Of a stretch of DNA of 64,000 bases, positions 1 through 63,103 are shown piece after piece (position 1 is the stretch's first letter; each line of letters begins with the position of its first letter). A program made the translations under genes and the position numbers. Origin of the DNA: Strigamia acuminata (lineage: Eukaryota > Arthropoda > Chilopoda > Geophilomorpha > Linotaeniidae); contig OX442322.1 in assembly GCA_949358305.1 (NCBI GenBank), positions 6,014,001 to 6,078,000 on the forward strand, written 5' to 3'. The notes under the pieces were generated by a model. It saw only the letters and a list, made by a program, of their open reading frames with translations, was not told the DNA's origin and ran no database searches.

Positions 1-239
1 TTCAAAATAAATATCCAAATTGAATTCGAAAACCTAAACAAATTAAATTGAATCCAATTTTAAATTAAACTATATTCTTATGAATATTTAAATAATTAGT
101 TCAAGATCTTGAAACCAAACAAACACAACACTCATGAGAATATTTCTTAAATAACTTCGAATAACACAACAAAACACTTGGAGTATTTTTTAGTCAAAAA
201 ATATCCACTCGGAAAATAACGAACGTTAATTTGTCGCTT
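1..239. other. AT-rich non-coding stretch, probably 3' untranslated part of element F
   Basis: The stretch is A/T-rich with many stops on both strands and lies downstream, in the minus direction, of the last open part of F ORF3. The F 3' LTR has not started here: I see no match to the AT-rich sequence at the F 5' edge (41880-41901). Confidence 0.5.
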
Positions 240-9671: not shown

Positions 9672-9690
9672 TGGTAGCAGAGGATGGTTT
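9672..9690 (+). other. Element C primer-binding site (initiator tRNA-Met 3' end)
   Basis: TGGTAGCAGAGGATGGTTT lies one base after the LTR and is complementary to the CCA-terminated 3' end of metazoan initiator tRNA-Met. Confidence 0.9.
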
Positions 9691-10686
9691 GCTATTAAAT
9701 TAGCAACATTCTCGGCTAATTATCGACGTAAAATTTGCAAAATTTGCGAATTTGCGCCGAACTTGTTATTTTCAGATTTTCAACCGTTTTTCGACCCGAA
9801 AACGTCTGCACGACGTTCTCGCTGCTGCCTGAGACGTTCAATCAACGTTTAGGACCATTCACGACGTCGATCTCACCATTTTTGAATTTAATTTAGCCAG
9901 AAATTGTGCGGGATTCGCAAATTTCTAGGCAAATATTGTATTTTTCCGTTTTCACAGATTTTCAACAGATCACCACAGCCAAGGCTGTTTTTCCAGCAAT
10001 TCTTTAGTTAATGTTGTCCGAAACCACGCGGGATTCGCGGATTTCGAGACGAATTATTTTCTTTTTCAGATTTCGCGACTTTTTCGAATTCCGACACCGT
10101 TTAGCGAAGTGCGACGGTTCCAACGAGAACCCAATACTCGATTATTGGCGGCTTAGTTCCCCGGTGAACGGTCGTAATCTGCGATCTATCAAGAGGAAGA
10201 AGAGCCTCGAATTTTTCGAGAAGAATTCGGACATTAACGTCCGAATTGCGTTTTCTCCGGCTTTTCGAGAAAGCCGAGCCGCGCCTTCATTTGCGCGAGG
10301 ATCGCAACCGCGATCGATTCACCTATTTCTCCTTTTTCGAAATACCATTGTTAACTTTAAGATAAATTTAAGGCTTTTGGGGGTTCCTTTAGAATCGTGT
10401 TTGCTCTTCGATCGAGTCCGATCACGCTTACACGTATTCTCCGGTTGTGCTTGTCGTGGTACAAGTGAAGTTTCCCGCGGCTCCAGGAAGCCGATCGGAC
10501 CCTTTCAGACTGGCAACCGGAGGTTATTTGATTCCTTCAGAAGGAATTGCCCAATTTGTGGTTTGTCGCCTCGAACACCGAGGGAACCGTGTAGTGAAGT
10601 GCTCCGAATAGTGAATTGTGCTCCGATTCTGTGCCACTCTCTGAGCCTTTGTGTTCTCCGCGTCGTGTCTCGTCCAGCGATTCAAA
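9691..10686 (+). promoter_or_regulatory. Element C leader (about 1 kb)
   Basis: A long untranslated leader lies between the PBS and the gag ATG. It has an open stretch from about 10011 in another frame that shows no protein similarity I recognise. The last 300 bases contain the conserved three-hairpin block annotated separately. Confidence 0.6.
10375..10547 (+). ncRNA. Conserved leader RNA element, copy in element C
   Basis: The block begins TTTTGGGGGTTCCTTTAG and holds three hairpins: GATCG-AGTC-CGATC (10410-10423), CGGCT-CCAGGA-AGCCG (10478-10493) and ATTCCTT-CAG-AAGGAAT (10531-10547). The same order, with the same loops and different but still complementary stems, occurs in the leaders of D and J, and in K with one weaker middle hairpin. 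Possible roles are RNA packaging, dimerisation or translation initiation; the sequence does not say which. Confidence 0.75.
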
Positions 10687-13600
10687 ATGCACAAATCAGG
10701 GAATCCGAACAATTTAATTACGGTTCTTGGTGTCGACAATTACGAACAATGGCGATTGTCGATGCAGTTTCTCCTGAAATCTGAAGGACTTTGGCGCCAC
10801 ATAACGGAGGACAAAGAGGCAGAACACATTGCCACCCTGACGGCTAAAGAACTTGATCGCTTCAACATAAAGAGGGACAAGGCGCTAGGCCTCATATACC
10901 TCCATGTGAGCCCCGCCAAGCGTACTGTTTTGGAAACCTGTAACACGCCAAAGGAGGCTTGGGACAAGTTGGCGAAAACATATGCGCCCAGCTCTAGAGC
11001 CCGTCAAGCGGCGATGCGCTGGGAGTTCCTCAGCCTCCAACTCCAACCTGGCGAAGATGTGCCAGATTTCATTGCCCGCGTGGACAATTACGTGCGCCAA
11101 TTAAGCGACGTCAATGAAGTCATCAGTCCGGTTTACTACGCGTACCAGTATCTGAAGTGTCTGCCGCCCGAATATGCTCAGGCGACCTTCGCAATATACC
11201 ATTGGCCGGATCCTCAATTCACGCCGAAGGATGTTGCCGAACAATTGATTTCCGAGCACAAGCGGCTCAAATCCATCGGGTTACTCGGAACGAGCCAATC
11301 AGCAGCTCACGCGTCTATGAAGGGACAATTCCGACCCCGAAATAAATCCGGACCTCGTGATATCTCGACAGTGAAATGTTTTAATTGTGACCAGCTCGGA
11401 CATTACGCAAACCGATGTCCACGCCCGCCCCGTCAACAACAGGACCAACCTACGGTTTCACTCCAACGTAATTCTCGGAGCAAAAGTCGCAGGCGCAACA
11501 AGAACGCTGCTGCGAAGGCCAACAACGCGCGTCCCCGAGAAAGCTCGCATCCACACCGAGAGGGGACATATTTCGTCAATGCGCCGCAGGTTATCCAACG
11601 TCCAGTCGCTCATTTCATGCAATCCAATGAGTGGATTCTGGATTGCGGCGCTACAGATCACGTATCTCACGTGCGTGCCGGTTTCACCGAGTTCACCGAT
11701 GTCATTCCATTCGACATCGAGTTGGGACAGGGAAAATCCCAAGTCACGGGCAAAGGAACGGTGCGTTTGTTAATGGCCATCGACAAGACCCGCTGCACCG
11801 TGAATTTGACCAATGTTCTTTACGCGCCGAATTTCGAGGCAAACTTGATTTCGGTTTCGAAGATAGACAAGGCGCGACATCACATCCACATTTTCAATAG
11901 TGAGATACATGTTTACAAATCGGACATTCGCAGCCCTCTTATCCGTGCAAAGGAGAGAGGAAGTCTTTATTATGTGGACGGTTTGTGTACGAATCCGACA
12001 TTTGCGACAACGGTTTCTCCCATTGTACAACCGATTCCAACGCTACCGCCGCAAATGTACGTGACAACAGAAGAGGATTTTATTAAAATTCCCAAACCGA
12101 AAAAGGGAAAAGGACAGCAAAGAGAAATTACGGATTTTCGGATTGAAATGCCGCTAGTTGAACCCGCGAAGCAAATTCCCGTCCAACAAGCTCCCATTCC
12201 AACCAATCCGATTCCTCCTCCTATCCCTACTCAAATCCACAACAATTTGACCACCCCTCCTTCCTATGCGAGTGCCCTACAGTCAATCCCAACGGCAACC
12301 CCTATTGCAATTCCAAATGCAAATTCCTTTCCTCCCCTCGGCAACCCGTCTCAACCGAAAAAGAAGGTCATCGCCAATTCAGCCTCCGTCAAGGACGCCA
12401 CCGGCTTATGGCATAGCCGGCTTGGCCACCTTCATACGAATGGAATGAAGCTGTTGGCCGCAAACGACCAAGTTTACGGAATGTCACCAGGGGAAGTGAG
12501 CAGGGAATTGGCCTGCAACGATTGCAGAATAGCCAAATCGACAAAACCTTCTCATAAGCCTGATCCGAATCCCTCGACTACGAAGCCTTTGGACCTTCTC
12601 CACATGGATATTTGGGGGCCAGCCCCAGTTCCATCGTTTGGAGGAGCGCGTTTCGTCCTTACTGTCATCGACGACGCAACACGCTATTGCTGGATTATAC
12701 CGCTAGCCCAGAAATCGCAGGTTTTCGCAACCTTTAAGGACTTCGTCGCTCGAGTTGAGAGAATCCAGGACACGCAAATAAAAGCAATTCGGACTGATCG
12801 AGGCGGAGAGTTTATGTCAAACGAGTTTCTCCGATATCTACAAGACAAGGGCATCCAGGGTCAGCGAACGAATCCGTCATCGCCACAGATGAATGGCACG
12901 GCCGAGCGCATAAACAGGACAATGGCCGACAACTTTCGTGCAGTCTTATCCGAAACCAAGTTGCCGGAGGCGCTCTGGGCCGAGCTCTCGGTCACGTTTG
13001 CCTACATCAAGAATCGGAGCCCTCATTCTCGACTTAATAATCAGGTCCCATACATCCTTTGGCGACAGAGAGCCCTTTCGTTACGACATCTACGGAAGGT
13101 CGGTTCCAAGTGCTGGGTGCACTACACCGCGCCAGGCCGCAGGAAACTGGATCCGCGGGCCTGGGAGGGATATTTAGTCGGCTACGCTTCAGGGACCCGT
13201 GGATACAGAATTTGGAACCCAACTGACAACAAAGTCTACGAATCTATTCACGTTAAGATCGATGAGCGCCAGTCGTATCGGAAATCCATCAAAATTTTGA
13301 CGCAGCAGCTGCAACAGTCGTTTACTGGTCCCGGACAACAAACCGTTACATTTGATGATAACCTACATTACCATCAGTGGCCGAAGGGATCTGATTCCGA
13401 GGCGTCGGAACATTCTGCGAACGATTCCGAACGTGTGTCGACGGCATCCGCTTCGATGCACACGCCTCTGGCTTTTCCGCACATCCACATACCACCACCG
13501 ACAACTCCGGAACGGGCATTGCTGGATTTATGTGCGACATTACCTCCAGGTTCTGCGTCTCTTCGTCAATCCCATCATATCTCGTACGAAGAGGAACGTG

Positions 13601-14902
13601 ACACCGACCTCGACATCCGAGAGATGGACGAATTGTCGATTTATCCGGAAACATCCGAACGCGTTGACGCATCAGCGGAACAATCGGCTCGACAATCGCC
13701 TCCAACAACTCCTCGTACATCCGCTCCACCCTCGCCTCAACGTCCGGCAGCACCTCCACTTCCTCGCGAAACGCCGGTGCCGACGCCAAGGTTCATTACA
13801 ACCCGTCGTCAACAACGCGTCGACGATCACGCTACGCAAGGGTTGCAAATCTTCGACCCCGATCCCAGTTCACCAGCGACTGCGCGCCACACCACTCATA
13901 AGTGGCGATTCGTCGGTGGAGATAGCGAGTGCCGTGAATGGGTACGCGAGGAACATCTCAGAAAGGATCAAAAACCCGGGAAAATCTTGATCGATGTCTA
14001 TTATTTTCCAACTCCGAAGATCCGTCTAAGATCTTATCACGACATCGAGGAGTATTGCATGTTAAATAACATCGATTACGACCCCGGACTATTTTTCTTC
14101 GGTAATCTCGAACACAAGTTACCAGTTCTTCCGGGCGTTCGTCATGCGGCTCATTTATGCCGAACCGAACCGGCTTCGTTTGCCGAAATTCCGAAATTCA
14201 ACGACGCTCCGAAGTGGCGGGAAGCCATCCAAGAGGAACTGGACACTTTCAAAGAGCGGGAGATTTACACCGAAGTTCCCCGACCACCGGACACGACAAT
14301 ACTCGGCTGCAAGTGGATTTTTAAGCTAAAGACCGATGCAACCGGAACCGTCACTCGATACCGAGCACGCTTAGTAGCGCAAGGTTTTTACCAAACCCTC
14401 GGTGTAGATTTCGATGAAGTATTTAGCCCGGTCGTGAACTTCGTGTTAATTCGTCTATTTTTCTGCCTTCTCGTCGTACTCCGCGGTTGGAAGGACGCCC
14501 ATCTCGATGTGAAATGTGCGTACCTGTATGGGGAGCTCAAGCATAAAGTCTACATGCGAATCCCCGCAGGTGCCACATGCTCCGACTCGAATAACGTGTG
14601 GCTTCTCCTCAAGTCGCTATATGGGCTCCACCAATCCGGCAGGCAATGGTTCGAAAAACTCGACGAAACTCTTCGGGCCCTCGGATTTCGAAAGATGCCG
14701 GCATGCAATTGTGTCTACGTACTCGGCAACACCGCTGTCATGCTGGTTTACGTGGATGACATCGTTGTATTCTATGCATCCGACAGTGTTTTCACACAGC
14801 TGATTCGACTCATCAGTTCAAAATTCGATATCGTAAATCTCGGCCCGATCACGAAGCTCCTAGGCGTCGAGTTCATCCGCGACGCCGGACGCACGTTTAT
14901 TA
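10687..14902 (+). CDS. Element C copia gag-pol polyprotein, N-terminal part
   Basis: The ATG at 10687 (AAAATGCA) follows the leader. In order: gag of the UBN2 type (about residues 1-200), zinc knuckle CFNCDQLGHYANRC (near residue 231), protease WILDCGATDHV (near 316), a proline-rich linker (about 455-550), pre-integrase zinc region (WHSRLGHLH...CNDCRIAKS), integrase with D (HMDIWGPAP), D (IRTDRGGEF) and E (NGTAERINR), then reverse transcriptase with LVYVDDIVVF near residue 1357. The frame runs into element D at 14903. Removing D with one TATTA copy joins it to 31658-32445 as 5,004 bases, divisible by three, giving about 1,667 residues with no stop. It was coding-competent before D inserted. 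Confidence 0.95.
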
Positions 14903-15372
14903 TGTTGTTTATCGATGCCAAACAGTCCTCCGTACTTGTTTTGCGCATTTCTTAAAGTATTACTGCATTATGCAGCCTAGTGTATTTATTAGGATTTATT
15001 TCATTATTTAACATTGGGCATAATGCTGCCTGCATCATGTTAGTATTAGTTTACTTTTTCCAACACCAGATGGTGTCACTTGTATGTTTTCTCTCAATCA
15101 CAATGGCCGCTTGCATGCCAGCAAGCACTCATGTATTTTCTCCATCTAAATGGACCAAATTATGTAAGCATTTTCGTTTTTATTAAACATTTAGTTTATT
15201 TTACATTGTGTTTGCTATATATGAGCACTTTAGAGTGCAGTGACTTTATTTTCCACCATTTTCAAGCGCTGGAGGTGCGCGCACGTCATTGCGCTCATAT
15301 TAGCCGTGTTTCGGCATTTAAACTCGCTTCCACACACAGTATTTTATACTGTGAGCGCACTCCTCTGCTACA
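14903..15372 (+). repeat. Element D 5' LTR (470 bp)
   Basis: It begins TGTTGTTTATCG and ends CTCTGCTACA, and matches 31183-31652. Confidence 0.95.
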
Positions 15373-15392: not shown

Positions 15393-16223
15393 GCTATCCT
15401 TGCAGCACGCCGAAACCGCTAATTTTTATCGCCATTTTCGCGAAATTCGCGAATTTGCGATAAATTTTCTATTTGCAGATTACGCCGATTTCCGCGACGA
15501 TTTTCGTCTCTAGAACATTCGAGACGACACGCCGACGTTCTCACGTAGTCTGCACAACCAACTCTACGATTTTTCATTTAATTTCGTCCGAATTTCTGCG
15601 GGTTTCGCAATTTTCGAGACGAATTTCAATTTATTTTCAGATTTTCGCCGTTTTCCAACGAGATTCGACGTTGGAAACCCGCTTTACACAGCGTGAACGA
15701 CGAATTGGATATCCCGACCTCGTACACAGTGTACGGTCGTTGTTACGACGATTTTCCAGGATTTTCGCATTTTAAATGCGCAACAACGCCATTTTCGATT
15801 CTCGAATATTGGCGCAACGTCTCATCACACTAATTAATACTTGCCTTTCAGTTGTCGTAATTAGCTTGTTAGTATTTAAGGTCGTATTAAGTTTTTGTGG
15901 GTCCTTTAGAATAGTTTTTGCTCTTCTGTTCCAGTCGGAACTACCGCATTAACTCATTCCTAGCCAGTGCTTACCGTGGCCAACAGGTACTCCCGCGCCT
16001 CCAGGCAGGCGAACGGACCCCTGTGTGTTGGCTGGCTAGGGTTATTTGGCCACTTCAGAAGTGGTCGCCCAATTCGATTGATATCCGCTTTGACAGTGCT
16101 CCGATTAGTGCGCCGTATTTGTGTAGTGCTACGCGATATTGTGCACCGAGACCGTCAAGTGCTCCAATTGTACCATTCTCCATCCAGTGTGTTTTGCTAC
16201 GGGTTGTTTCGTAACTCCACGTC
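15393..16223 (+). promoter_or_regulatory. Element D leader
   Basis: An untranslated leader of about 0.83 kb runs between the PBS and the ATG at 16224. Its distal third carries the conserved three-hairpin block. No open frame in it looks coding. Confidence 0.6.
15892..16066 (+). ncRNA. Conserved leader RNA element, copy in element D
   Basis: It begins TTTTGTGGGTCCTTTAG. Hairpins: GTTCC-AGTC-GGAAC (15928-15941), CGCCT-CCAGGC-AGGCG (15996-16011) and CCACTT-CAG-AAGTGG (within 16048-16066). Loop sequences equal those in C while the stems differ by paired changes. Confidence 0.75.
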
Positions 16224-42523: not shown

Positions 42524-43046
42524 TGTGGAAAATAAATGATGGTGTAAGTCCAAAACAGCATATTTGGCTTTGCCAAAAATCCGCACAGGCGGTGGCCATG
42601 TTTAATCATGGTTTTCAACTTAAGAGTGCATACAGAACAAATCATTTATATGTTACATAGAATCATTGATCAGGTGACTTATGATCACATAAATGTTGAA
42701 CATAGAACAAATCATGTAAAATGCAAACAATACGGAAATACATTTGGCATGGCATTTATAATCTTACAAATGCCAGATAATATACATAAACTTAACGCAT
42801 ATAAATACACAAATGTATTTAACAACAATGTCACTTAAATGCACGTACAGTATTCCTGCGTATTATACAAATTCGCAACTCAGGGCAGGTAATACAAATA
42901 CACTGAACAATTAAAGGCACGTTGTACTAATGGCGCAATAAACCATAAACTCGCGCCAGATATCATCGAGCAATTAACACGCTTGGTAAGGTAAACATAC
43001 TCGGACATGCAACTTATTTGCCTACAAAAGAAACCTATTTCCAACA
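42524..43046 (-). repeat. Element K 3' LTR (523 bp)
   Basis: In element sense it starts TGTTGGAAATAGG and ends TTTTCCACA. It matches 48977-49499. Confidence 0.95.
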
Positions 43047-47751: not shown

Positions 47752-48957
47752 GATCAAATTTCAAAATAATACCGTAGCACAATTCACTTTGCACAAACAC
47801 TTTCACAAAAATAATCTGAAGACACAGTAAATCCACCCTAGGACAAATCTCACTAAGTGAGATGCAAAACTCTACACAGTATCCCCCGAGTTCCGACCGG
47901 ACTCCTAGGACCGCGGGACACTCGGTGGCCAGGGAAAGCCTGTGCAGAAATAGGATGGCACTAGTCGACTGACTAGAGGGTGCCAAACACACTAAAGGGC
48001 CCAAACAAAACCTTAAATAACTAATGACAAGTAATTTCGAACCCCTAAATGCACTTAAATCGATGTGAAGTTGGCAAAGTTGAGATGATTCGTGTATTTG
48101 CGGGACTGTGCGTCGCAAAACGATCCCCAAGCTGGCAGCTGGTCGCTCTCTCGTAGCACGATAGTACGCCGGGGTACAGGCTCGTGTGTGTGCGGAATTT
48201 CCTTCCTCGCACACAATCGCGATCGTTCGCGACTTCGCAATTGCCGTTGTGCAAATTGCGGCTTTTCCAGTGGATGATATGAACGTTTCACGTTCGTAAA
48301 TGCTCCTGGGAGTGTCCACGGAGCTTCCAAGCACGTTGTCGAAGCGTGTGCGCGAAGAAACGTACGTCGTACGTCGTTGAATCGCCGCTAAATTGCCGAC
48401 GATCTCCGTGCGCTTGAAATGACGAAAATCTGGTCGAATTCCGTTGAAAACCAGCGCGAAAACGATCCAAACAATAAATATGTTCATTAAATAAAGTAAT
48501 CCTCACCGCTGAATGTCCAAATCAATCCAAAAACCACGATAAATGTGTGTTGATACTGCGCAAACACTTATAAGACGGGCGCCGCCATCTTGGATTTCGG
48601 AAAAGACGGTCTCGGTGAAAATGCACAGTCCAGCATGGTTTAACAGTTTCCAACTGTTAAATAATCAAAAAGAATGTTAATATATATTATATCCACCGCT
48701 GTCGGCAAAAACGCTGTGGTTCCAGCGCCGAAAAACGCTTGAAAACCGTCCAAAAACGAATAATTCCGTCGTTGCCGCCCCGAACTTGGCTTCGCTGCTA
48801 AACGACGCACTTCAGACGTTCGTCGATGCCTGGTTTCTGTCTCTACGGTCCGCCCGGGTCGTGCGCGATGTCCGTGGTTGCCGAAAATATGCGTTCCTGG
48901 TCAGAATTTCGGGCTGAGTTCGAATTTGGCCACGAAACTCACGCTGGACTTACAGAG
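47752..48957 (-). promoter_or_regulatory. Element K leader
   Basis: An untranslated leader of about 1.2 kb lies between PBS and ATG. It contains a YY1/Pho-like CCAAGATGGCGGCGCCC (about 48579-48597, minus) and the conserved three-hairpin block. Short open frames here have no recognised similarity. Confidence 0.6.
47847..48010 (-). ncRNA. Conserved leader RNA element, copy in element K
   Basis: In element sense it begins TTTTGTTTGGGCCCTTTAG. Hairpins: CTAGTC-AGTC-GACTAG (47961-47976) inside an outer TGGCA/TGCCA stem (47956-47985), CGGTC-CTAGGA-GTCCG (47898-47913, one mismatch) and ATCTCACT/AGTGAGAT (47847-47863). Order and the AGTC loop match C, D and J. Confidence 0.75.
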
Positions 48958-48975
48958 AACCATCCTCTGCTACCA
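48958..48975 (-). other. Element K primer-binding site
   Basis: In element sense TGGTAGCAGAGGATGGTT follows the 5' LTR by one base; it is the complement of the initiator tRNA-Met 3' end. Confidence 0.9.
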
Positions 48976-48976
48976 A

Positions 48977-49499
48977 TGTGGAAAATAAATGATGGTGTAA
49001 GTCCAAAACAGCATATTTGGCTTTGCCAAAAATCCGCACAGGCGGTGGCCATGTTTAATCATGGTTTTCAACTTAAGAGTGCATACAGAACAAATCATTT
49101 ATATGTTACATAGAATCATTGATCAGGTGACTTATGATCACATAAATGTTGAACATAGAACAAATCATGTAAAATGCAAACAATACGGAAATACATTTGG
49201 CATGGCATTTATAATCTTACAAATGCCAGATAATATACATAAACTTAACGCATATAAATACACAAATGTATTTAACAACAATGTCACTTAAATGCACGTA
49301 CAGTATTCCTGCGTATTATACAAATTCGCAACTCAGGGCAGGTAATACAAATACACTGAACAATTAAAGGCACGTTGTACTAATGGCGCAATAAACCATA
49401 AACTCGCGCCAGATATCATCGAGCAATTAACACGCTTGGTAAGGTAAACATACTCGGACATGCAACTTATTTGCCTACAAAAGAAACCTATTTCCAACA
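48977..49499 (-). repeat. Element K 5' LTR (523 bp)
   Basis: It matches 42524-43046 and is flanked on the right by GAAAC. Confidence 0.95.
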
Positions 49500-53037: not shown

Positions 53038-56000
53038 TTATTGAGCCCGCAAAATGCTTAAATCAACTAAGAAGCGATCGCAAAACTTCACCAGGTCAGC
53101 TTTGTCAACTGACTTTGTAAAAATGTCGGCATGATTGGACTTTGTGCCTACGTGAACGATTAGAAGATTATCTCTTTTAACAAGCTCTCTTATAAAATGG
53201 TAACGGATGTCAATGTGCTTTGTTTTTCTGTTCTCGACACAAGATTTTGTGAAATCCACTGCTGATATGTTGTCGCACATGACATAATGAGAGAATCTTC
53301 CAGCCAATTCTGGGGATATTTCGTGCAGAACACGAACAATCCAAATATAGTCCTTAACAGTTTCTGTAAGGGCTACGTACTCCGCCTCCATTGTTGACAG
53401 TGTCACGTTCCGTTGTTTGAAGGTCCGCCAGTAGATGGGTGTGCTACCCAAAGTCACTAGTGTTCCTCCAACGGAAATTCGGTCGTCTCTGTTGTTCGCA
53501 TAATCGGAGTCGCTGTATCCGATTACCTCGATCCGATCATTCGGGAACAACATTAATCCGTGGTTTCTTGTTGTTCTCAGATAACTGAGTAAGTCCAGTA
53601 GCGCAATCCAGTGGTCCCACCCTGGATTCGATTGAAATTGGCTCAGGATGTTCACTGCATAAGTCATGTCGGGCCTTGTTCTCGACGCGATGAATGCTAA
53701 ACATCCAAGTAAGCTTCTATATGGAATTCCTTCCATGACTTTGAATTCATCAATTGTGTCCGGACAATCTCGTTTCGTGAGAACAGTTGCTTTCGTCATC
53801 GGTTGAGATCGAATCTTCACATGTTCCAAGTGATTTTTGAACTTCAACAACACTTTGTTCACGTACGATCTTTGATGTAGAACCAATTGTTGTTTGTGCG
53901 AGTGAAATTCGACTCCTAGCAACTTCTTCGTTTGTCCGAGAATCACTAAATCGAATTGCGTTCCAATCATGTTGAGTATTTTCATCGCATCTTCGTACTG
54001 CTTTCCGAAGACAACGATATCGTCAACGTAGACGATTAGATACGCAATGTCTCCGTATTTATAAACGCAATTGCACCAATTGACGTGTTCTAGTCCTAAT
54101 TTCAATAAAGTCTCCTCCAGTTCTATTCCCCATTCTGTTCCAGACTGGTGCAAGCCATAGATGGCTCGGAGGAGCCTGCAGACATAGTTCTCCTTGCCTT
54201 CAATGATGAAGCCTTTTGGCTGGCGCATGTAGACTGTTTTATGCAATTTTGCATAAAGGTATGCACACTTGACGTCTGCCTGAATGTATGACCATTTGAG
54301 CATACAGACGAGTAGCGTGAACATAAAGCGCACGATTGAAAAGTCTACCACGGGTGAGAATGTCTCCTCATAGGATTCGCCGTAGACTTGGGAAAACCCT
54401 TGCGCGACAAGTCTCGCCTTATAACGTGCAATTTCTCCCTCTTCGTTCTGTTTGGTCGTATATATCCATCTGCAACCCACTATCTTAGTGTTGGGCGGCG
54501 GTGGAACAAGTTCCCAAACCTCGCGCTCATGCATGGTGTCAATTTCATCGTTCATCGCTTGGCGCCATTCATCCTTTTCGGGTAAAGTCGCAATTTCCTC
54601 ATAACGTACGGGTACGTGGACCTCTAGATGATTGGCTTCGAAGTTGATATTGATATCGTCAAAGTCCACGTCAAGACTATCTGTCGTCGTGTTTGATTCT
54701 GAGGGCTTTTTCTTTCTTTTGTCCTCAAACAGATGCTCTGGTACGCGAAGATTGTGGTCAGTACAGTAACGCTTCACCTCGGGTATCGAGCGTAACTTGG
54801 GTTTGTCGTAGCCCTCGATCGTGTACTCGACATCTCTCTGTCCAGTCGGTCTGACTTTCTCCGTTTTCTTCCAAACTAGTGCTGGAATAGTTGGAACTGG
54901 ATTCAAAAGTCCTTGTCCGGGTTGTGGCAAAGTGCCCTGCAACTTCACTTCTGGTAAATTATGATGCAACTTGTCATCTGGCAGTCTAAATTTCAATTTA
55001 ACTGGGGGCAATTCCAGTTGCGGATCTTCCTTCTTCTTTACTGGTACTGGCGGTGGTAGTGGCGGCCTGACATCTTCATCCGAATAATATTGGCGTTCAT
55101 TGTCATTATCCAAATTGTCGTCCAAATTATCGATGTATGTCGTGTATTTTTCTGGTAAGCCCAGCACGCCTTCAACACCGCGCCTGCTCTCCACGAACTT
55201 CACGTCGTTGGTTTCAATTACTTTGGAAAACTCCGGCAGCCATACTCGATATCCTTTCGTGATTCTTGAATACCCGAGCATAATGCCATGCAGACTCTTG
55301 TTGTCGATTTTGCCATCTCGAATTCTTTTCTGCACAAAGCATAAACTCCCGAATTTTCTCAAATGTCTAAGTGATGGTTTCCGTCCGTAATACAATTCCA
55401 TCGGCGTCTTGTCCGAATTCAGCTTTGCGATCCTGTTCCTGAGATAGTTGAAAGTCAGGATGGCCTCTCCCCAGAATCGATGTTCCAAGCCGGCATCGTA
55501 CACAAGCGCTCGCATTCCATTTGCTAATGTCTGGTTAAGTCTCTCGGAAACGCCATTTTGGACTGGAGTGTACGCGTTAGTCCTCTCGTGAGCGATTCCT
55601 AGTCCTTGGAGGTACTCTCCAAACTTGTTTGAGCAGAACTCCATACCGTTATCCGTACGAATTGCGAGAACCGATTTCCCAAGCAATCGTTCTATTCGTT
55701 TCACGTGTTTTTGGAAAATGTCAAATACTTCGTCCTTCTTCTTCATTAAGTACACTGTCGAATAACGAGAGAAGTCATCCGTGATAGTTAAGAAGTATAT
55801 GTTTCCCGAGAGTGTTGGTGTACTAAATGCTCCACATACATCCATGTGTAGCAATTGGAGTGGCTCTGTCGATCTAATCCCTGGCAACGACTTATGAGGA
55901 ATCGCCTTCTTCTTGGCTAATGTGCAAACGTCGCATTGTGTAATTGGCACGTCCAGAACTGGCAACCCAATTACTGCACCTCCTTTGCTCATTGCTTGGA

Positions 56001-57510
56001 CGCTTGGAAAATAGATATGGCCGAGCCGCTCATGCCAAAGTCTTGCTTCCTCAGGATTAGATGCACTCTTCGTTGTACTTTGTGTTGAAATAGTTGGCTC
56101 TTGTTTCTTCTGTTCGCCAACGTTCGCTTTGCTATTCGCTTTTTGTCGTAATTTCTCAAAGTCCGGCTTCTGGTCGCTTAGCTTGATGTAGTACAAACGA
56201 TCCTTCTTCACGCCTTCCATCAGCTGTCTCTTCCACTGAGGATCGTATATCTTCACCAAGCCCGAGCCAACGGCGACTTTGCATCGTGCTTCGTCGATGC
56301 ACGGTCCCGACAACAAATTTCGTCGCATGTCCGGCGCATAATAAACCTTCTTCAATGTGATTGGAATTGTCTCACTTCCAACCAAACACATCACGCAAAC
56401 GTCCCCGACGCCTTGAATCTGAATTAAAGTCTTCTTATCCGCTTGACTTATTGTCCCTGTGGTTTCCTTGAAGTTGAAGAACTGGTTCCTATCTTTACAA
56501 AAATGTCCAGTGGCCCCAGTGTCGTAGATCCAACAGTTGTTGGCTGCGCTGCACTGTAACATCTCTTCCTCGCTCAACTCGGTGAGAAAACCGACATCGA
56601 ACATGTTTGTGTCCAATTCTTCCGCTGTATTTGTGTTCTGGCTGTTATTCGACGGTAATTGTGCTGTGCAATCCCTTGCCCAGTGCCCTGGTTGATTGCA
56701 CCGGAAACACGGCCCCCGTGGTGATGATCCGGTCGCATTTCCTCGGAAATTCCGCGAATTTTTGCCGCCTCGATAATTCGATTTGCCGCCCCTTTGTCCG
56801 CCTCGGTTGTTTTGGCTGCTATTCCCTTGCTGTTGTTGGGATTTAGACGAATTATCATTGCTCTTTGTGCTTGTTCCCATGTTGAAAGCGTCCGTAATTG
56901 GCGCTTGGCCCGAATCTCTGCGTTGTTGCGCGAGTCTGCCCTCCTCGGCGACCAATTCCGCTTCAACCTTTTCCAGTGTGAAATCCTTATCGTCCCATCG
57001 ATAAATACTCTGCACAATTGACTGGTATTCTTGTGGCAGGTATCGGATGAGCTGGAATGCCTGATACAAATTGTCCAAGTCGTGTTTGACGTCGGCTAAT
57101 CGCTTTGCTGCATTGCGTATCTTCGCCGCGAATACCCCGATCGTCTCCGTCGCTGGATCGTATTTTAAATTGAAGAATTCGTCCAACAGACGTATAATTC
57201 TCGCCCTCGAGACCGGTTCGAAGTTAGTTTTCAGCATATCCCACGCTGTTTTCGCGTCCTCGGTCCCGCTGAGCAATTCGTGGTATTGCTCCTCGATGGC
57301 GTAGTAAATTAGGCTGAAAGCTCGCCCCTTTCGCAGTTGAAAGTCCGAGCGATCTCGCCAAGACGCTCCCGGTGCCAGGGCTTCTTGTGTTCCATCGGTG
57401 AAGGCCCAACATCCGTGGTGCATCAACAGCACTTTGATTTGCTGCTTCCACGTATCGTAGTTCGTCCTATTCAAAAGTGTAATCTTCCGGTCGAGTTTTT
57501 CCGTGTCCAT
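53038..57510 (-). CDS. Element H intact copia gag-pol polyprotein
   Basis: ATG at 57510 (MDTEKLDRKITLLNR) is chosen over the longer open frame because relatives A and I start at the same residue. It has 1,490 residues. Domains: gag (about 1-210), zinc knuckle CFRCNQPGHWARDC (near 265), protease YDTGATGHFC (near 335), pre-integrase (WHERLGHIY...CDVCTLAKKK), integrase with HMDVCGAF, IRTDNGMEF and NGVSERLN, an acidic/proline linker (about 780-880), reverse transcriptase with VYVDDIVVFG, RNase H (SDSDYANNRDDR, CDNISAVDFTKS). All catalytic motifs are present and there is no stop. It reverse-transcribes and integrates its own RNA by analogy with copia. Confidence 0.96.
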   Translation of the reverse strand: MDTEKLDRKITLLNRTNYDTWKQQIKVLLMHHGCWAFTDGTQEALAPGASWRDRSDFQLRKGRAFSLIYYAIEEQYHELLSGTEDAKTAWDMLKTNFEPVSRARIIRLLDEFFNLKYDPATETIGVFAAKIRNAAKRLADVKHDLDNLYQAFQLIRYLPQEYQSIVQSIYRWDDKDFTLEKVEAELVAEEGRLAQQRRDSGQAPITDAFNMGTSTKSNDNSSKSQQQQGNSSQNNRGGQRGGKSNYRGGKNSRNFRGNATGSSPRGPCFRCNQPGHWARDCTAQLPSNNSQNTNTAEELDTNMFDVGFLTELSEEEMLQCSAANNCWIYDTGATGHFCKDRNQFFNFKETTGTISQADKKTLIQIQGVGDVCVMCLVGSETIPITLKKVYYAPDMRRNLLSGPCIDEARCKVAVGSGLVKIYDPQWKRQLMEGVKKDRLYYIKLSDQKPDFEKLRQKANSKANVGEQKKQEPTISTQSTTKSASNPEEARLWHERLGHIYFPSVQAMSKGGAVIGLPVLDVPITQCDVCTLAKKKAIPHKSLPGIRSTEPLQLLHMDVCGAFSTPTLSGNIYFLTITDDFSRYSTVYLMKKKDEVFDIFQKHVKRIERLLGKSVLAIRTDNGMEFCSNKFGEYLQGLGIAHERTNAYTPVQNGVSERLNQTLANGMRALVYDAGLEHRFWGEAILTFNYLRNRIAKLNSDKTPMELYYGRKPSLRHLRKFGSLCFVQKRIRDGKIDNKSLHGIMLGYSRITKGYRVWLPEFSKVIETNDVKFVESRRGVEGVLGLPEKYTTYIDNLDDNLDNDNERQYYSDEDVRPPLPPPVPVKKKEDPQLELPPVKLKFRLPDDKLHHNLPEVKLQGTLPQPGQGLLNPVPTIPALVWKKTEKVRPTGQRDVEYTIEGYDKPKLRSIPEVKRYCTDHNLRVPEHLFEDKRKKKPSESNTTTDSLDVDFDDININFEANHLEVHVPVRYEEIATLPEKDEWRQAMNDEIDTMHEREVWELVPPPPNTKIVGCRWIYTTKQNEEGEIARYKARLVAQGFSQVYGESYEETFSPVVDFSIVRFMFTLLVCMLKWSYIQADVKCAYLYAKLHKTVYMRQPKGFIIEGKENYVCRLLRAIYGLHQSGTEWGIELEETLLKLGLEHVNWCNCVYKYGDIAYLIVYVDDIVVFGKQYEDAMKILNMIGTQFDLVILGQTKKLLGVEFHSHKQQLVLHQRSYVNKVLLKFKNHLEHVKIRSQPMTKATVLTKRDCPDTIDEFKVMEGIPYRSLLGCLAFIASRTRPDMTYAVNILSQFQSNPGWDHWIALLDLLSYLRTTRNHGLMLFPNDRIEVIGYSDSDYANNRDDRISVGGTLVTLGSTPIYWRTFKQRNVTLSTMEAEYVALTETVKDYIWIVRVLHEISPELAGRFSHYVMCDNISAVDFTKSCVENRKTKHIDIRYHFIRELVKRDNLLIVHVGTKSNHADIFTKSVDKADLVKFCDRFLVDLSILRAQ

Positions 57511-58291
57511 TGTGAATTTAGTGTCCAACGCACCAGAAACACAGCAAAAACACACACAAGATTGCTCAAAAACACTTTGAAATACTGGTAATCGCAACTG
57601 GGTGCAGTGTTGCGATGTTAGTTCGCTCTTAATACTATGTTAGTGTATCCTAGTAACAACACTAAGCTAATAATGGTATTCAACAATATATTCGAAAATA
57701 AAACGAAATAAACGAAATAAAGAGTTCATATATGTTGGCTTCCTGCTGCAGACTATCCACTTGTTTCGTACTGACAGCTTTAAATCACACTTCACGTGTG
57801 GTTGAGAAAAATCGTCGTATTGTTGATTTTTCCTCGTTTTTCCGTCTCTCGTCTCGACAAATTCAGTTTCTTCGAGAATCTTCTCGTTCTTGGCAATTCC
57901 CTGCTCGTTCACACTTCCCGTGTGGTTGTCGAGCGTCGTCGTCCTCGCGTATTCGTTGTCGAGTTGTTTTCTCGGCGAAAATTAACGCCACGTCGACGTT
58001 ACGTATCGCGCCTCGCGATATTCGGAGAAATCGTCCGAAAATGGCCAAAATAAACGTATTAAATAAATGTTCTATAATGTTCGAACCCTTTTATTGTTCC
58101 TGCATCGCTTGATGACCAATAACCGCTTGTGAAACCGTAGATTCTTGGCTGGAACACAGGTTGCTGACTTTCCTCATGGGCGCCGCCATCTTGGATTTTG
58201 AGGAAAACGCCCACTTTTTCACCTGTGGTTGCTTTGAAATGTTTTCAAACACTCTAGCTGTTTTTCCCACGTTGTTTGTGGCCCATAACCT
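57511..58291 (-). promoter_or_regulatory. Element H leader: half-tRNA primer site, YY1-like motif, hairpins
   Basis: The PBS at about 58279-58291 reads AAGGTTATGGGCC in element sense. A YY1/Pho-like CCAAGATGGCGGCGCCC lies near 58178-58198 (minus). A hairpin at 57903-57934 has outer arms GCTCG/CGAGC and inner CACAC/GTGTG; a second copy (57786-57805) keeps only the inner stem. Confidence 0.7.
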
Positions 58292-59175: not shown

Positions 59176-59194
59176 TGGTAGCAGAGGGTGGTTT
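59176..59194 (+). other. Element J primer-binding site
   Basis: TGGTAGCAGAGGGTGGTTT matches the initiator tRNA-Met 3' complement with one change. Confidence 0.85.
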
Positions 59195-60736
59195 GGTGAG
59201 TGTTTAACGTTGCTACAACGTTAAAATTCGAATTTGCGACGATTTTCTGGCCGAGAACGTCGAGTGCGCGTGACCGGAGATTCGCGGAACGACGGGCGGC
59301 ATTCGAGGACGTTTTCGCGGCACGGCGATCGAGGATTCGCGTGCTCAGTAGCGCAGGAAACCGAACGGAAGTGAACGAGGCAGTTTTAGACGTTTTTCGA
59401 GGAAAAACGACGTGGAATCATCGTGGGAGTGTTTGCCTAGACAGTAGGAACAATTGTCGTTTAAATTGCGATTAATTTGGTGAAAATAACACCTATTTTC
59501 GACGAGACGAAAGCCACGATGACGTATGTTTTCAAAATGGCGACGCTCAGTGTATTTTTCAGAAGTGGCCGTGTTTAGACTGTTTCCAGGTCGCCCAGCG
59601 GTTTACAACGCTGGATTTGGCATCGTTTTAGTGCAAAAAGGCACGGCGGATCGTTTGGAAGCGGTTTCGAGTTGATCCGAGGGCAATTTTTGGTTGAAAC
59701 GAGGATTTTTGACCGGCGACGTGCGCGAACATATTTCGCCAACACATTACGAGTGTTTTCGCTAGTTTTAACGTCTCTCAGCACTGGAAATTACAACGTG
59801 GGACCACATAAGGATCCCAGGAAGCGATAGGAAGCGGTTTGGAAATAAATCGAATTGTTTTTCGTCGGAAACGAGCATTTTTCGGCGGCGACGAGAACGG
59901 CGTCGCATTCGACGATAAAGCGTCGAAATTCATCAAGAGACGAGTGGAATTCGTCTGTGGAATCGTGTAGGAACACTATTGGATTCCCTAGAGACAGTAG
60001 GACATTTGTATTAATCGATTTATTATTAATTTGCGTTGTATTTTTGCCGAGATGTGCGGGGCAGCCAAATTCAAGATGGCGCCACACGTGTGAACACGGA
60101 AAAGCGAGGAGAATCGTCTGCAACACGTCGTAAGATTATTTCCACGTGGGATTTCGTCGATTGGACGATCTACGAGGTTGCAACAAACGTTTCAGCGACG
60201 TTTCGGGATTTTTGGCGAACATTACGAGATTTTTGGACGCGTTTCGTGCGACGGGCACAAACGCATCACGGATTAGCCCGGGACGGGTATCTGTGCAACG
60301 AAGGGACCGGATAAGTCTTGTGCCAGGTGCACAAGTGAATTACACCGATTCAAGCGACGTTACAACGGCGTCAACGAGGGATTTTGCGACGCAAAAGTCC
60401 TGCAAAGAAGACAACTTGCCAGCAAAGTGTTATTGTTTATTTTCTGGGTTGTCGTGAAACTTTGTATAGTTTATAAGTTTTTGTTTGGGCCTATTAGTGT
60501 ATTCTGCACCCTTTTGGGTAGTCACCCAAGTGCAGTCTTATTTCGGTTTGGGCTTGCCCGTGGTACAAGGTAGCCGTCCCGCGCCACCAGGTTGGCGGTC
60601 GGAAGCTATCAGGGCGACCAAACTCGAGTATTAATCCTTCTTATAAGGATTTCCCCGGGAAGATTGTTATTTTTCGCCTATATTTTGGAGGAAAAGTGTA
60701 TTTATTTGTGCAAAGTGCTGCAAATAATCAGTGAAA
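59195..60736 (+). promoter_or_regulatory. Element J leader (about 1.5 kb)
   Basis: Two YY1/Pho-like motifs are present: CAAAATGGCGACG (about 59533-59545) and CAAGATGGCGCC (about 60071-60082). Open frames in this stretch have no recognised similarity. The conserved three-hairpin block is at its distal end. Confidence 0.6.
60478..60651 (+). ncRNA. Conserved leader RNA element, copy in element J
   Basis: It begins TTTTTGTTTGGGCCTATTAG. Hairpins: TTGGGT-AGTC-ACCCAA (60514-60529) inside an outer TGCAC/GTGCA stem (60505-60534), CGCCA-CCAGGT-TGGCG (60582-60597) and AATCCTT-CTTAT-AAGGATT (60633-60651). Loops of the first two equal those of C and D. Confidence 0.75.
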
Positions 60737-63103
60737 ATGTGTTTTGTGCCATCACTAAATATATTAGTGAGTGTGGTGTTGTTGAGCGGTACACGTTTTG
60801 TACAAACAGTGTTTTGTGCGACGAGAAGGTCTGTAACAGACAGTGTGAATGCTTTTAGCAGGCAGCCAATGGATGACACACACAAGCCACAATTGGAGAT
60901 GAAAACACACGAACAGAATGTCTTTAACGGACATACAGTGTATAACGCACTGAAAGATCATCTGAAAAGGAAAGATGATGTCTGTGAAGAAGAATATTTA
61001 GAGTTTGATTCTGATTTAGACAGAAATGTAAAATTACTAACCCATTTAATTTATAAGAGCACATTAACACATGACATTGCAGTGTTGGCAGGGGCCATTA
61101 ATGATCTAATTTTAGCGATTAGTAAAATGCATGTGCATAAAGGGGAAGCGAATGGGGTTAGCAGTAACAAAGTGCAGGGCACTAGTGATGGTAATCAGAA
61201 CAGCAACGTGGTTGATTCAAATGTGATTTTGAATGCCATGGATGATGTGCAAAACATCAAATCCCAACATGGATACGGGGATTTAGAATATTTGAACAAG
61301 GTTCAAATTAGAAAAGGAAATAAAGAATTGAATTTCACCACAATTAAAGGTGGTAACCCCCTTAATTCTGTTAAAACAAAGGAAGAAATTAGGCCTAAAT
61401 TCACAGAAATGGAACATTCGAACCGGGTTCGGAATGAAAAGAGAGAGGGGGACCCAGATAATATGAAAAAGGGTTTTGTTAGCAATAGGAAATTGCATGG
61501 TGCAACCTTAATTAAGGGAAGTGGTCTTCCAAAGGGGATTTCAGGAAAATCCAAAAGAGGTTTGAGTAACCAAAAGTCAAGTATGACAAGAATTAAACCA
61601 AATGATCCCTTGAATTCTGATGCTAGAAATCAGAAAAAGAGTTCTAAAAATGTTACAAAGCGGAAAGAAAAGTTTTACAAGGACAGGGCTCTTCCATTCT
61701 CACTGTGGCATACCCGGATGGGGTATTTAAATGAGGAAAGTGTTTACGCCATGAATGGGTCACAAGATGTTTTTGGTGTTCAATTGGAGAACACAGGGAC
61801 CTCTCCTATGACAGGAGATTTGGCAAAGAAGAATGTTCTTCCAACACGGATGAATAAAGCAAATGGGACATTGGATTTGGTACATCTGAGTGTCTGGGAT
61901 GTCCCACATGCACAGGGAGACAGATATGTCGTATTTGTTGATGACCATTCGGAATATGTTTGGTTAAGACCGCTACATAAGAGTATTTTGAGCGAATTTC
62001 AAGAATGGTTATTTGAAATTGGACACACAACTAAGAAAATAGTTAAAAAAATTAGATTGGGTCCCGGGATAATTTTTTCACAAGAAGAATGGGATCAATT
62101 CACTCAGGCTAGAGGAATTGAAATTGATGAAGAGGAATTTGATAATTTAGATATTAATTTCATCTCAAAAAGGACAAATGTGAATATCACAGAAAGTGTG
62201 GAAGCTTTGATAGTAGAAAATGAATTTCCAAGTTATTTGTGGTTGGAGCTAGCCAACACAATAACATACTTAAGGAATAGGACCCCCAGGATCGATTTAG
62301 ATTGGAAAACCCCTTACAATATATTGTATAACAGATGCATTTCTGTGCGACACCTGAGGTGTATTGGGTCAAAAGTTAAGGTGTTTTATGTTAAGGATGG
62401 ACTGAAACACTCCTTGGTGGGTGCCTTAATTGGGTATTCAAAATTTGGTAGGAAATATCGGATATGGGATCCGGAAAGGAACAGAGTATTTCAGTCAAAT
62501 AATGTTAAGATACATGAGTGGAGTTATTGGCACGAGGGGGAATTGAAACCCTCTCTGAAAGTTTCCAACAGTTGCAATAGTTGCATTGAGAGTTTGAAAG
62601 CTGAAATTTCATCGAAGGTTGGTGTGCCAATATCCCCTCATCAAGAAGCCCCATCAACATTAGACTTGTTGGAATTAGAAAATCCCCCATTGTCGTTAAG
62701 TAAAGAAGTCGACATTAATGAGTGTGGAATTATTGAAAACGAGGGGGAACTCTTAGAGAGAATTGAGTGTGATCTCTTAAAGACACATGTTGATTCCAAA
62801 GTGGAAACGGATGCGTTTTCTAGAGTTGATAAAGTTGGTTTGTCGACACCTAGGGAAGTTGACAGAGAAGGAGTTTATGAGGAAAATCTCCCATTGTTAC
62901 CGAGCGAAGAAATTTACGTTGATAAGTGCGAAAGCATTGAAAACGAGGGAAAACACTTAGGAACATTTGTCACAAGTGATGAAGAGGTTTATGAGGGACT
63001 TACTTTGTCGCGCTCAACTCTAACCGTCGCTAACTCGTGGGTTGATTACTTAATTCGACTAACTCACTACCGCTTTGCTCAAGCGGTTTACCCAAAGAAA
63101 TGA
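60737..63103 (+). CDS. Element J: long ORF with a catalytically dead copia integrase
   Basis: It starts at ATG 60737 (an in-frame ATG at 60869 is the alternative) and runs 788 codons without a stop. The first 310 residues are Lys/Asn-rich and lack both a zinc knuckle and a protease motif. From about residue 318 it aligns with copia integrase, closest to K: LWHTRMGYLNEESVYAM, DVFGVQLE, a core near 380-480 and the C-terminal region with SVRHLRCIGSK and YRIWDPERNRV. The catalytic Asp of HMDVWG is Ser (HLSVWD), the second Asp motif (RTDNGGEF in K) reads RLGPGIIF, and the CxxC zinc pair is gone; only the Glu (NITESV) remains. It ends in an acidic repeat-like tail. Enzyme function is excluded by these changes; a structural or interfering role is speculation. 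Confidence 0.8.
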   Translation: MCFVPSLNILVSVVLLSGTRFVQTVFCATRRSVTDSVNAFSRQPMDDTHKPQLEMKTHEQNVFNGHTVYNALKDHLKRKDDVCEEEYLEFDSDLDRNVKLLTHLIYKSTLTHDIAVLAGAINDLILAISKMHVHKGEANGVSSNKVQGTSDGNQNSNVVDSNVILNAMDDVQNIKSQHGYGDLEYLNKVQIRKGNKELNFTTIKGGNPLNSVKTKEEIRPKFTEMEHSNRVRNEKREGDPDNMKKGFVSNRKLHGATLIKGSGLPKGISGKSKRGLSNQKSSMTRIKPNDPLNSDARNQKKSSKNVTKRKEKFYKDRALPFSLWHTRMGYLNEESVYAMNGSQDVFGVQLENTGTSPMTGDLAKKNVLPTRMNKANGTLDLVHLSVWDVPHAQGDRYVVFVDDHSEYVWLRPLHKSILSEFQEWLFEIGHTTKKIVKKIRLGPGIIFSQEEWDQFTQARGIEIDEEEFDNLDINFISKRTNVNITESVEALIVENEFPSYLWLELANTITYLRNRTPRIDLDWKTPYNILYNRCISVRHLRCIGSKVKVFYVKDGLKHSLVGALIGYSKFGRKYRIWDPERNRVFQSNNVKIHEWSYWHEGELKPSLKVSNSCNSCIESLKAEISSKVGVPISPHQEAPSTLDLLELENPPLSLSKEVDINECGIIENEGELLERIECDLLKTHVDSKVETDAFSRVDKVGLSTPREVDREGVYEENLPLLPSEEIYVDKCESIENEGKHLGTFVTSDEEVYEGLTLSRSTLTVANSWVDYLIRLTHYRFAQAVYPKK

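What the first reader, a model, noticed from the sequence alone, without database searches (positions are those of the whole stretch)
10375..10547. Conserved three-hairpin leader RNA shared by four copia families, with covarying stems
Leaders of C (10375-10547), D (15892-16066), K (minus, 47847-48010) and J (60478-60651) share an opening TTTGNNNGGGYCCTTTAG-like motif and three hairpins in the same order. Hairpin 1 has loop AGTC in all four with stems GATCG/CGATC, GTTCC/GGAAC, CTAGTC/GACTAG and TTGGGT/ACCCAA. Hairpin 2 has loop CCAGG with stems CGGCT/AGCCG, CGCCT/AGGCG and CGCCA/TGGCG (K: CTAGG loop, one mismatch). Hairpin 3 has stems ATTCCTT/AAGGAAT, CCACTT/AAGTGG, AATCCTT/AAGGATT and ATCTCACT/AGTGAGAT. 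Paired changes in stems with fixed loops are strong evidence for a selected RNA structure. Candidate roles: packaging or dimerisation signal, or an internal ribosome entry site in these 0.85-1.5 kb leaders. I know of no described family with this pattern.
Basis: seen in the sequence. Interest (0 to 1): 0.88.

Follow-up and report, generated by a model that had tools for sequence, protein, structure and literature searches.

The report
Folded RNA leader of copia retrotransposons
Many related jumping genes in this genome share an intricately folded piece of RNA just before their first gene; the fold is kept even when the letters change, and even in copies that lack that gene, so it is probably the tag by which the element's RNA is picked for packaging.

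Summary
The core motif occurs 478 times in the 237.5-Mb genome (reversed control 0). In 37 distinct copies 90.1% of pair cells are standard pairs (shuffled 65.7%); covariation is 0.692 against 0.231 (0 of 500 shuffles). A covariance model also found one lineage with a changed core (82 bits) and nothing in four short-leader copia lineages (one copy each). Rfam has no match.

Function is inferred. AUGs are avoided along the whole leader, upstream of the domain too (14 against 81 expected), so ribosomes probably scan it; this argues against an IRES. A gag-less, RT-less family (J) keeps the domain in 10 of 10 copies examined. In its non-coding 5' part J shares only the primer site and the domain region with its closest autonomous relative found. 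The spacer behind the domain holds repeated GUGCNNCG/GUG motifs (27 against 0.9 expected in one clade). Best explanation: a genome-packaging signal, a folded anchor plus single-stranded sites for Gag's zinc knuckle. RNA export or translational control remain possible. New RNA family; known kind of device.

The parts
10372..10549 (+). structured RNA domain of element C
   Evidence: CM R1 154 bits; helices mapped; R1 was built with this copy among its seeds
10399..10431 (+). C: arm 1 (outer stem 10399-10404/10426-10431, apical stem around 10410-10423, loop AGUC)
   Evidence: helices 1-2; two of the six outer pairs are mismatched in C
10438..10523 (+). C: long arm: 10-bp stem 10438-10447/10514-10523, 4-bp stem 10467-10470/10501-10504, UCC/GGA 10473-10475/10497-10499, hairpin 2 10478-10482/10489-10493 with loop CCAGGA
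10529..10549 (+). C: hairpin 3 (9 bp, 3-nt loop)
10550..10686 (+). C: AUG-free spacer with GUGCNNCG/GUG repeats, before the gag AUG
9672..9691 (+). C: primer-binding site TGGTAGCAGAGGATGGTTTG (recalled: complement of the 3' end of initiator Met tRNA)
   Evidence: sequence; tRNA identity recalled
10687..14955 (+). C: gag-pol open frame (gag, zinc knuckle, integrase, RT)
   Evidence: Pfam
15889..16067 (+). structured RNA domain of element D
   Evidence: CM 141.4 bits
15375..15394 (+). D: primer-binding site
16068..16223 (+). D: AUG-free spacer with GUGCNNCG repeats; gag AUG at 16224
47844..48012 (-). structured RNA domain of element K
   Evidence: CM 143 bits
47752..47843 (-). K: AUG-free spacer with GUG repeats; gag AUG at 47751
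48977..49276 (-). K: 5' LTR (300-bp repeat, identical to 42524-42823); primer-binding site just inside at 48975
42524..42823 (-). K: 3' LTR
60477..60653 (+). structured RNA domain of element J (gag-less family)
   Evidence: CM 160.5 bits
60654..60736 (+). J: AUG-free spacer with GUG repeats
60737..63103 (+). J: 788-aa open frame without gag or RT, with degenerate integrase; the frame is open in 4 of 4 copies read
59176..59195 (+). J: primer-binding site

Best explanation
A cis-acting genome-packaging (encapsidation) signal of one clade of copia LTR retrotransposons. SHOWN by sequence: a ~178-nt sense-strand RNA domain (arm 1; a long arm ending in a hairpin with a near-fixed loop CYAGGN above a UCC/GGA step; hairpin 3), followed by a 70-180-nt spacer almost free of AUG with repeated GUGCNNCG or GUG motifs, then the gag start (in J, the start of another frame). 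It lies 0.4-1.3 kb downstream of the primer-binding site, so it is in the full-length RNA. INFERRED: Gag recognises the folded arm with its loop, and its single CCHC zinc knuckle reads the exposed GUG motifs; this selects full-length RNA for particles. Gag-less J elements keep the same domain and are packaged in trans by the Gag of autonomous relatives. Ribosomes reach gag by scanning through the leader, so the same RNA can be translated or packaged.
For: Covariation and strand: G.U 44 against A.C 10 in the variable pairs outside hairpin 3 and outside one nearly fixed U.G pair, pointing to the sense RNA; on an RT tree of 13 elements the smaller of left/right parsimony steps sums to 68 over 31 pairs. 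Out-of-sample: L096, taken from a gag hit and not by the motif, scores 82 bits. Gag-less family: 10 of 10 J-type copies examined carry the domain; in the leader J and autonomous L050 match only at -121..217 around the domain, and at the LTR end only in a 21-nt primer-site match; hairpin 1 differs between them by paired changes. Between the two main clades 17 of 18 leader matches cover the domain; one 94-nt match lies elsewhere. 28 of 32 motif loci have sense gag downstream. Spacer motif GUGCNNCG in 8 C/D-clade spacers: 27 against 0.9 expected (3 against 0.4 upstream, 6 against 2.3 in coding sequence). AUG avoidance in the whole leader weakens the main alternative.
Against: No binding, packaging or expression data. 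J still has an open frame after the domain, so a role in translating that frame is not excluded. The hairpin-2 loop is not a general palindrome, so no dimer-initiation site is evident. The spacer motif was chosen after looking, and the spacers are homologous to each other; in the K/J clade GUGCNNCG is rare (4 in 11 spacers; L043 and L049 have none even in the looser form), and the looser WGUG(A/C) is also enriched upstream there (34 against 15.3). Another long-leader copia element in the window (53038-57510, minus) has no match to the model, so not every copia needs this domain.
Confidence: 0.6

Rival explanations
1. Nuclear-export element (like constitutive transport elements): the folded RNA recruits a host export receptor so that unspliced full-length RNA leaves the nucleus.
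For: A near-fixed loop and core suggest a protein ligand; gag-less J elements would need export too.
Against: The adjacent GUG motif array is not explained. Splicing of these elements was not examined. No match to an Rfam family.
Confidence: 0.13
2. Translational control element: a strong fold near the gag AUG slows or gates scanning ribosomes and so sets the balance between translated and packaged RNA, with no direct role in Gag binding.
For: Its core motif lies 160-270 nt upstream of the AUG; scanning inferred from AUG avoidance.
Against: Blocking needs only stability, not the observed near-fixed loop, core and conserved order of helices; the predicted energy is only 1-2 SD below shuffles.
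Confidence: 0.13
3. Internal ribosome entry site for gag.
For: Compact covarying structure near the AUG; no AUG between domain and start in the 11 leaders.
Against: An IRES would free the upstream leader from AUG avoidance; instead ATG is the most depleted of 64 triplets there (14 against 80.7 expected, z -8.7; CAT control 91 against 116.6). Caveat: TGA is almost as depleted (47 against 114.9, z -8.5), which is unexplained. No Rfam match.
Confidence: 0.05
4. Dimerisation or reverse-transcription scaffold rather than packaging as such.
For: Retroelement leaders often combine these roles (Ty1: PMC5454406, start of abstract in the listing; PMC4974528, passages); CUAGG variants such as K and L049 have a palindromic CCUAGG around the hairpin-2 loop.
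Against: The distance from the primer site varies from 0.4 to 1.3 kb; most copies seen have CCAGG, not a palindrome (read by eye).
Confidence: 0.09

Closest known systems
BARE1/BARE2 copia elements of barley (PMC3735527, passages read)
   Same: copia superfamily; a gag-less parasite (BARE2) is packaged into particles, consistent with conserved dimerisation and packaging signals, as that paper says
   Different: plant element; in the passages read the signals are only named, with no covarying structure described; BARE2 lost the gag start codon by a deletion, whereas J lacks gag and RT
Ty1 5' cis-acting region (PMC4974528 passages; PMC5454406 start of abstract in the listing)
   Same: LTR-element RNA; packaging needs sequence within 580 nt of the 5' end; highly structured; Gag binds there
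   Different: in Ty1 a main Gag site is a 5' pseudoknot, whose role in packaging could not be shown; here a separate domain lies 0.4-1.3 kb after the primer site and Gag has a CCHC zinc knuckle
Retroviral psi/encapsidation elements (recalled)
   Same: several stem-loops with conserved loops just upstream of gag, next to exposed G-containing nucleocapsid sites
   Different: no Rfam match found
Sirevirus conserved non-coding motifs (PMC2829016, title and start of abstract in the listing)
   Same: conserved motifs in non-coding parts of copia elements
   Different: plant-specific; not read further, no comparison made

Membership tests
LTR-retrotransposon/retroviral packaging signal | lies in the full-length RNA between primer-binding site and gag | tested here: met
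   the 11 leaders measured (10 before gag, J before another frame); positions
LTR-retrotransposon/retroviral packaging signal | kept in non-autonomous derivatives mobilised in trans | tested here: met
   J family, 10 of 10 copies examined; that J is mobilised in trans is inferred from its lack of gag and RT and its copy number
LTR-retrotransposon/retroviral packaging signal | specific Gag/nucleocapsid binding | not testable with these tools
   only the motif array and a CCHC knuckle in 13 of 13 autonomous frames, some near-duplicates
LTR-retrotransposon/retroviral packaging signal | needed and sufficient for RNA encapsidation | not testable with these tools
   experiment
Internal ribosome entry site | upstream AUGs tolerated because ribosomes do not scan the leader | tested here: not met
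   ATG 14 against 80.7 upstream of the domain
Internal ribosome entry site | match to a described IRES family | tested here: not met
   Rfam, (whole window; C and J regions, permissive)
Any described Rfam RNA family | score over gathering threshold | tested here: not met
   0 in the window; best sub-threshold hit mir-365, 18.3 bits against 62
Copia (Pseudoviridae) elements as carriers | gag (Retrotran_gag_2), integrase before RVT_2 reverse transcriptase, primer-binding site | tested here: met
   C and K; D split over two frames; J lacks gag and RT
Half-tRNA-primed copia with short leader (Drosophila-copia type, recalled) | carries this RNA domain | tested here: not met
   0 of 4 such lineages, one copy each (L092-L095), match the model; primer type read from sequence
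Ty1-type 5' pseudoknot | pairing of the 5' R region with sequence after the primer site | not tested
   transcript starts unknown

The most novel reading that the evidence does not exclude
The domain plus GUG array is a shared packaging code for a whole clade of copia elements: autonomous families and gag-less parasites all display the same folded tag, paired changes keep it alive while its letters drift, and the array motif (GUGCNNCG against WGUG(A/C)) has split together with the zinc-knuckle sequence (GHYAN(K/R)C against HF(A/S)R(E/D)C) in the two main clades, so that parasites can be matched to helpers from sequence alone. Two clades are only one contrast; the link is a suggestion.
Probability: 0.3. 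Interest if true: 0.75.

Novelty: new variant of a known kind. Interest (0 to 1): 0.62.

Why it matters
The eight paper searches listed no covariation-supported RNA structure for a copia leader of this kind. This one has a defined secondary structure, a covariance model, a near-fixed core, a candidate array of protein sites, and natural gag-less users, so how copia Gag picks its own RNA becomes directly testable. It also gives a handle for finding parasites and their helpers in other genomes.

Tried and rejected
IRES: rejected as most likely because AUGs are avoided over the whole leader. Coding explanation for the leader: the 257- and 253-aa leader frames of C and K that cover the domain show no resemblance by eye; treated as chance, not tested further. 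Pairing between loops, or between GGGUCC and GGACCC (seen in D): looked for by eye in A1-A3, not kept across families. Chance motif: the 24 hits in 257 Gb of prokaryote contigs and 1 in viral contigs look like chance; 22 of these 25 loci score 8.9-23.1 bits (best E 0.0019), most over the hairpin-2 part only, against 82-169 bits for the others. Change of both bases of the closing U-A pair with the rest of the motif intact: 0 hits. First loop base not C with the rest intact: 2 hits (reversed control 1), both with the full structure. These two searches miss copies whose core has changed elsewhere, such as L086-L091 (an extra base in hairpin 2) and L096. 3' LTR of J: not found in the window or 2.5 kb beyond. 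Homologues of the J protein: one weak hit (27% identity over 23%). Host species: not determined; 'insect' is a guess.

Rows dropped: A2 used 18 of 19 cluster representatives (L013 left out; the window's D stands for the L018 cluster). A3 used the window and 47 loci (L001-L008, RT loci, not searched). A4 left out L010, L020, L025, L026, L028-L031, L035, L037-L039, L047, L082 and L087, most of them duplicates of kept copies by their scores or sequence (L010 differs), and L096, found later. The 13-taxon RT tree contains near-duplicates (L042/L051, L049/L052, C/L041). L086 and L087 are identical over the 290 nt read, and L084 and L085 are near-identical.

Full report
WHERE. The window is C13:6014001-6078000 of an unnamed 237.5-Mb genome with no held relatives. 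It is rich in LTR elements: Pfam shows copia-type gag, integrase and RVT_2 in C and K, gag and integrase in the two frames of D, and little in J; other copia and Ty3-like elements lie between them. K has identical 300-bp LTRs. C, D, K and J have the primer site TGGTAGCAGAGG(A/G)TGGTT, which by recall is the complement of the 3' end of initiator Met tRNA.

OBSERVATION. The energies are only 1-2 SD below shuffles, so stability alone proves nothing.

COMPARATIVE TEST. The core pattern has 478 exact matches in the genome and none for its reversed control. Eighteen representatives align well; RNAalifold finds 30 pairs, 22 of them with double changes. A covariance model of 176 positions was built. 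In the window it finds only C, D, K and J (141-160 bits; these were seeds). In 51 matches (30 distinct) and then 46 matches (37 distinct) the named structure pairs in 87.9% and 90.1% of cells, against 66% in shuffles and 32-48% with partners slid; covariation is 0.626 and 0.692, against 0.22-0.23 in shuffles; 0 of 500 shuffles reach it. The alignments are fitted to the structure, which leans towards it. The number of further pair types does not exceed shuffles in either set, and the number of pairs with double changes (27) is reached by 10 and 29 of 500 shuffles. Helix 6 (hairpin 3) pairs in only 59% and 68% of cells because the model's register fits one clade; read sequence by sequence, 36 of 37 distinct rows have at least 6 bp there, against 20.5% of mononucleotide shuffles. 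G.U outnumbers A.C by 44 to 10 in the variable pairs outside hairpin 3, pointing to the sense RNA. On an RT tree of 13 elements the smaller of left/right parsimony steps sums to 68 over 31 pairs, so the paired changes are not one inherited event; this is a per-side minimum and not a count of simultaneous double changes.

FIXED PARTS. In the 37 rows UCC/GGA and the CG/CG base of hairpin 2 do not vary. With the rest of the motif intact, only 2 genome hits have a first loop base other than C (reversed control 1), and none has both bases of the closing U-A pair changed. This constraint goes beyond pairing and suggests a ligand. It is not absolute. The 600 nt upstream of the gag match were taken for five more copia lineages chosen from the gag list by frame length. 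The model scored 82 bits (E 8e-19) in one, L096, whose core is changed and whose 1647-aa frame is as long as those of domain-bearing families, and nothing in the other four. Those four show a primer site GGTTATGGG(C/T)CCA about 110-220 nt before a likely gag start, by recall the internal, half-tRNA primer of Drosophila copia. The domain thus marks a clade with long leaders and a 3'-end primer site, though one more long-leader copia in the window (53038-57510, minus) lacks it.

CONTEXT. 28 of 32 motif loci have gag downstream in sense, in most starting 198-268 nt after the motif. Between the two main clades 17 of 18 leader matches cover the domain; one 94-nt match lies elsewhere. ATG is the most depleted triplet in the leader upstream of the domain (14 against 80.7) and in the spacer behind it (0 against 29.5); CAT is 91 against 116.6 and 20 against 20.0; TGA is almost as depleted upstream (47 against 114.9), which I cannot explain. 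Ribosomes therefore most likely scan the whole leader; an IRES would not need this. The spacer is full of GUG: in eight C/D-clade spacers GUGCNNCG occurs 27 times against 0.9 expected, but 3 times in 3.6 kb upstream and 6 in 10.5 kb of coding sequence; in eleven K/J-clade spacers it occurs only 4 times, while WGUG(A/C) occurs 40 times against 10.5, and is also enriched upstream there (34 against 15.3). The motif was picked after inspection and the spacers are related, so the numbers describe, they do not test.

THE GAG-LESS FAMILY. J's 788-aa frame has no gag and no RT and a degenerate integrase, and no copia RT was found behind it in the window or the next 2.5 kb. Forty of 88 candidate places for its first 901 bp were scored and gave 74 matched pieces, the main ones at 73-100% identity. 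In the four closest copies, the window's own included, the frame is open (788-800 aa), with dN/dS 0.51-0.76 where defined. All ten copies examined (these four, and six of the other 36) carry the domain at 104-161 bits: four in an L050-like version and six in a version that by eye is K-like. Between J and the autonomous L050 the only similar stretches found in LTR end and leader are the primer site and the domain region, -121..217, and hairpin 1 differs by paired changes. An element that needs foreign Gag and RT keeps what a packaging signal would be.

MECHANISM. I therefore take the domain plus spacer for an encapsidation signal: a folded anchor with a near-fixed loop and an array of exposed GUG sites for the CCHC knuckle, present in 13 of 13 autonomous frames, near-duplicates included. 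Shown: structure, strand, position, conservation, retention without gag. Inferred: Gag binding, packaging, trans-mobilisation. Rivals are RNA export, translational gating and dimerisation; IRES is the least likely.

KNOWN RELATIVES. Rfam: none. [quoted passage not shown] Ty1 packaging needs sequence within 580 nt of the 5' end, with a pseudoknot whose packaging role could not be shown (PMC4974528, passages). Paper searches listed no copia leader structure of this kind; most subscription papers are not held.

Noticed in passing
window 60737-63103 (+); L083-L085: J family: multi-copy gag-less, RT-less copia derivative with a retained ~800-aa frame (signal-peptide-like start by eye, degenerate integrase), dN/dS 0.51-0.76; copies carry two different versions of the leader domain, suggesting leader exchange.
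   Followed up: partly
leaders upstream of the domain, 11 leaders: TGA is as strongly depleted as ATG by z-score (47 against 114.9) while TAA and TAG are not; GTG is enriched (146 against 80.6).
   Followed up: no
window 53038-57510 (-), leader 57511-58250: Another long-leader copia element without this domain; its leader has a different 8-bp hairpin (ATCGCAAC...GTTGCGAT, 57616-57591) about 80-105 nt before the gag AUG, perhaps a different signal.
   Followed up: no
L092-L095: Other copia lineages in the same genome show an internal-tRNA-type primer site (GGTTATGGG(C/T)CCA) and short leaders, so two priming types coexist.
   Followed up: partly
window 49688 (-): A second primer-site-like TGGTAGCAGAGGGTGG outside K's 5' LTR: K may lie in or beside the leader of another element.
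   Followed up: no
L048 1801-2612 and 5781-6093 (reverse-complement coordinates): A copy with the domain, no copia protein found in the 9.9-kb locus, and tandem-repeat-like arrays upstream and downstream.
   Followed up: no
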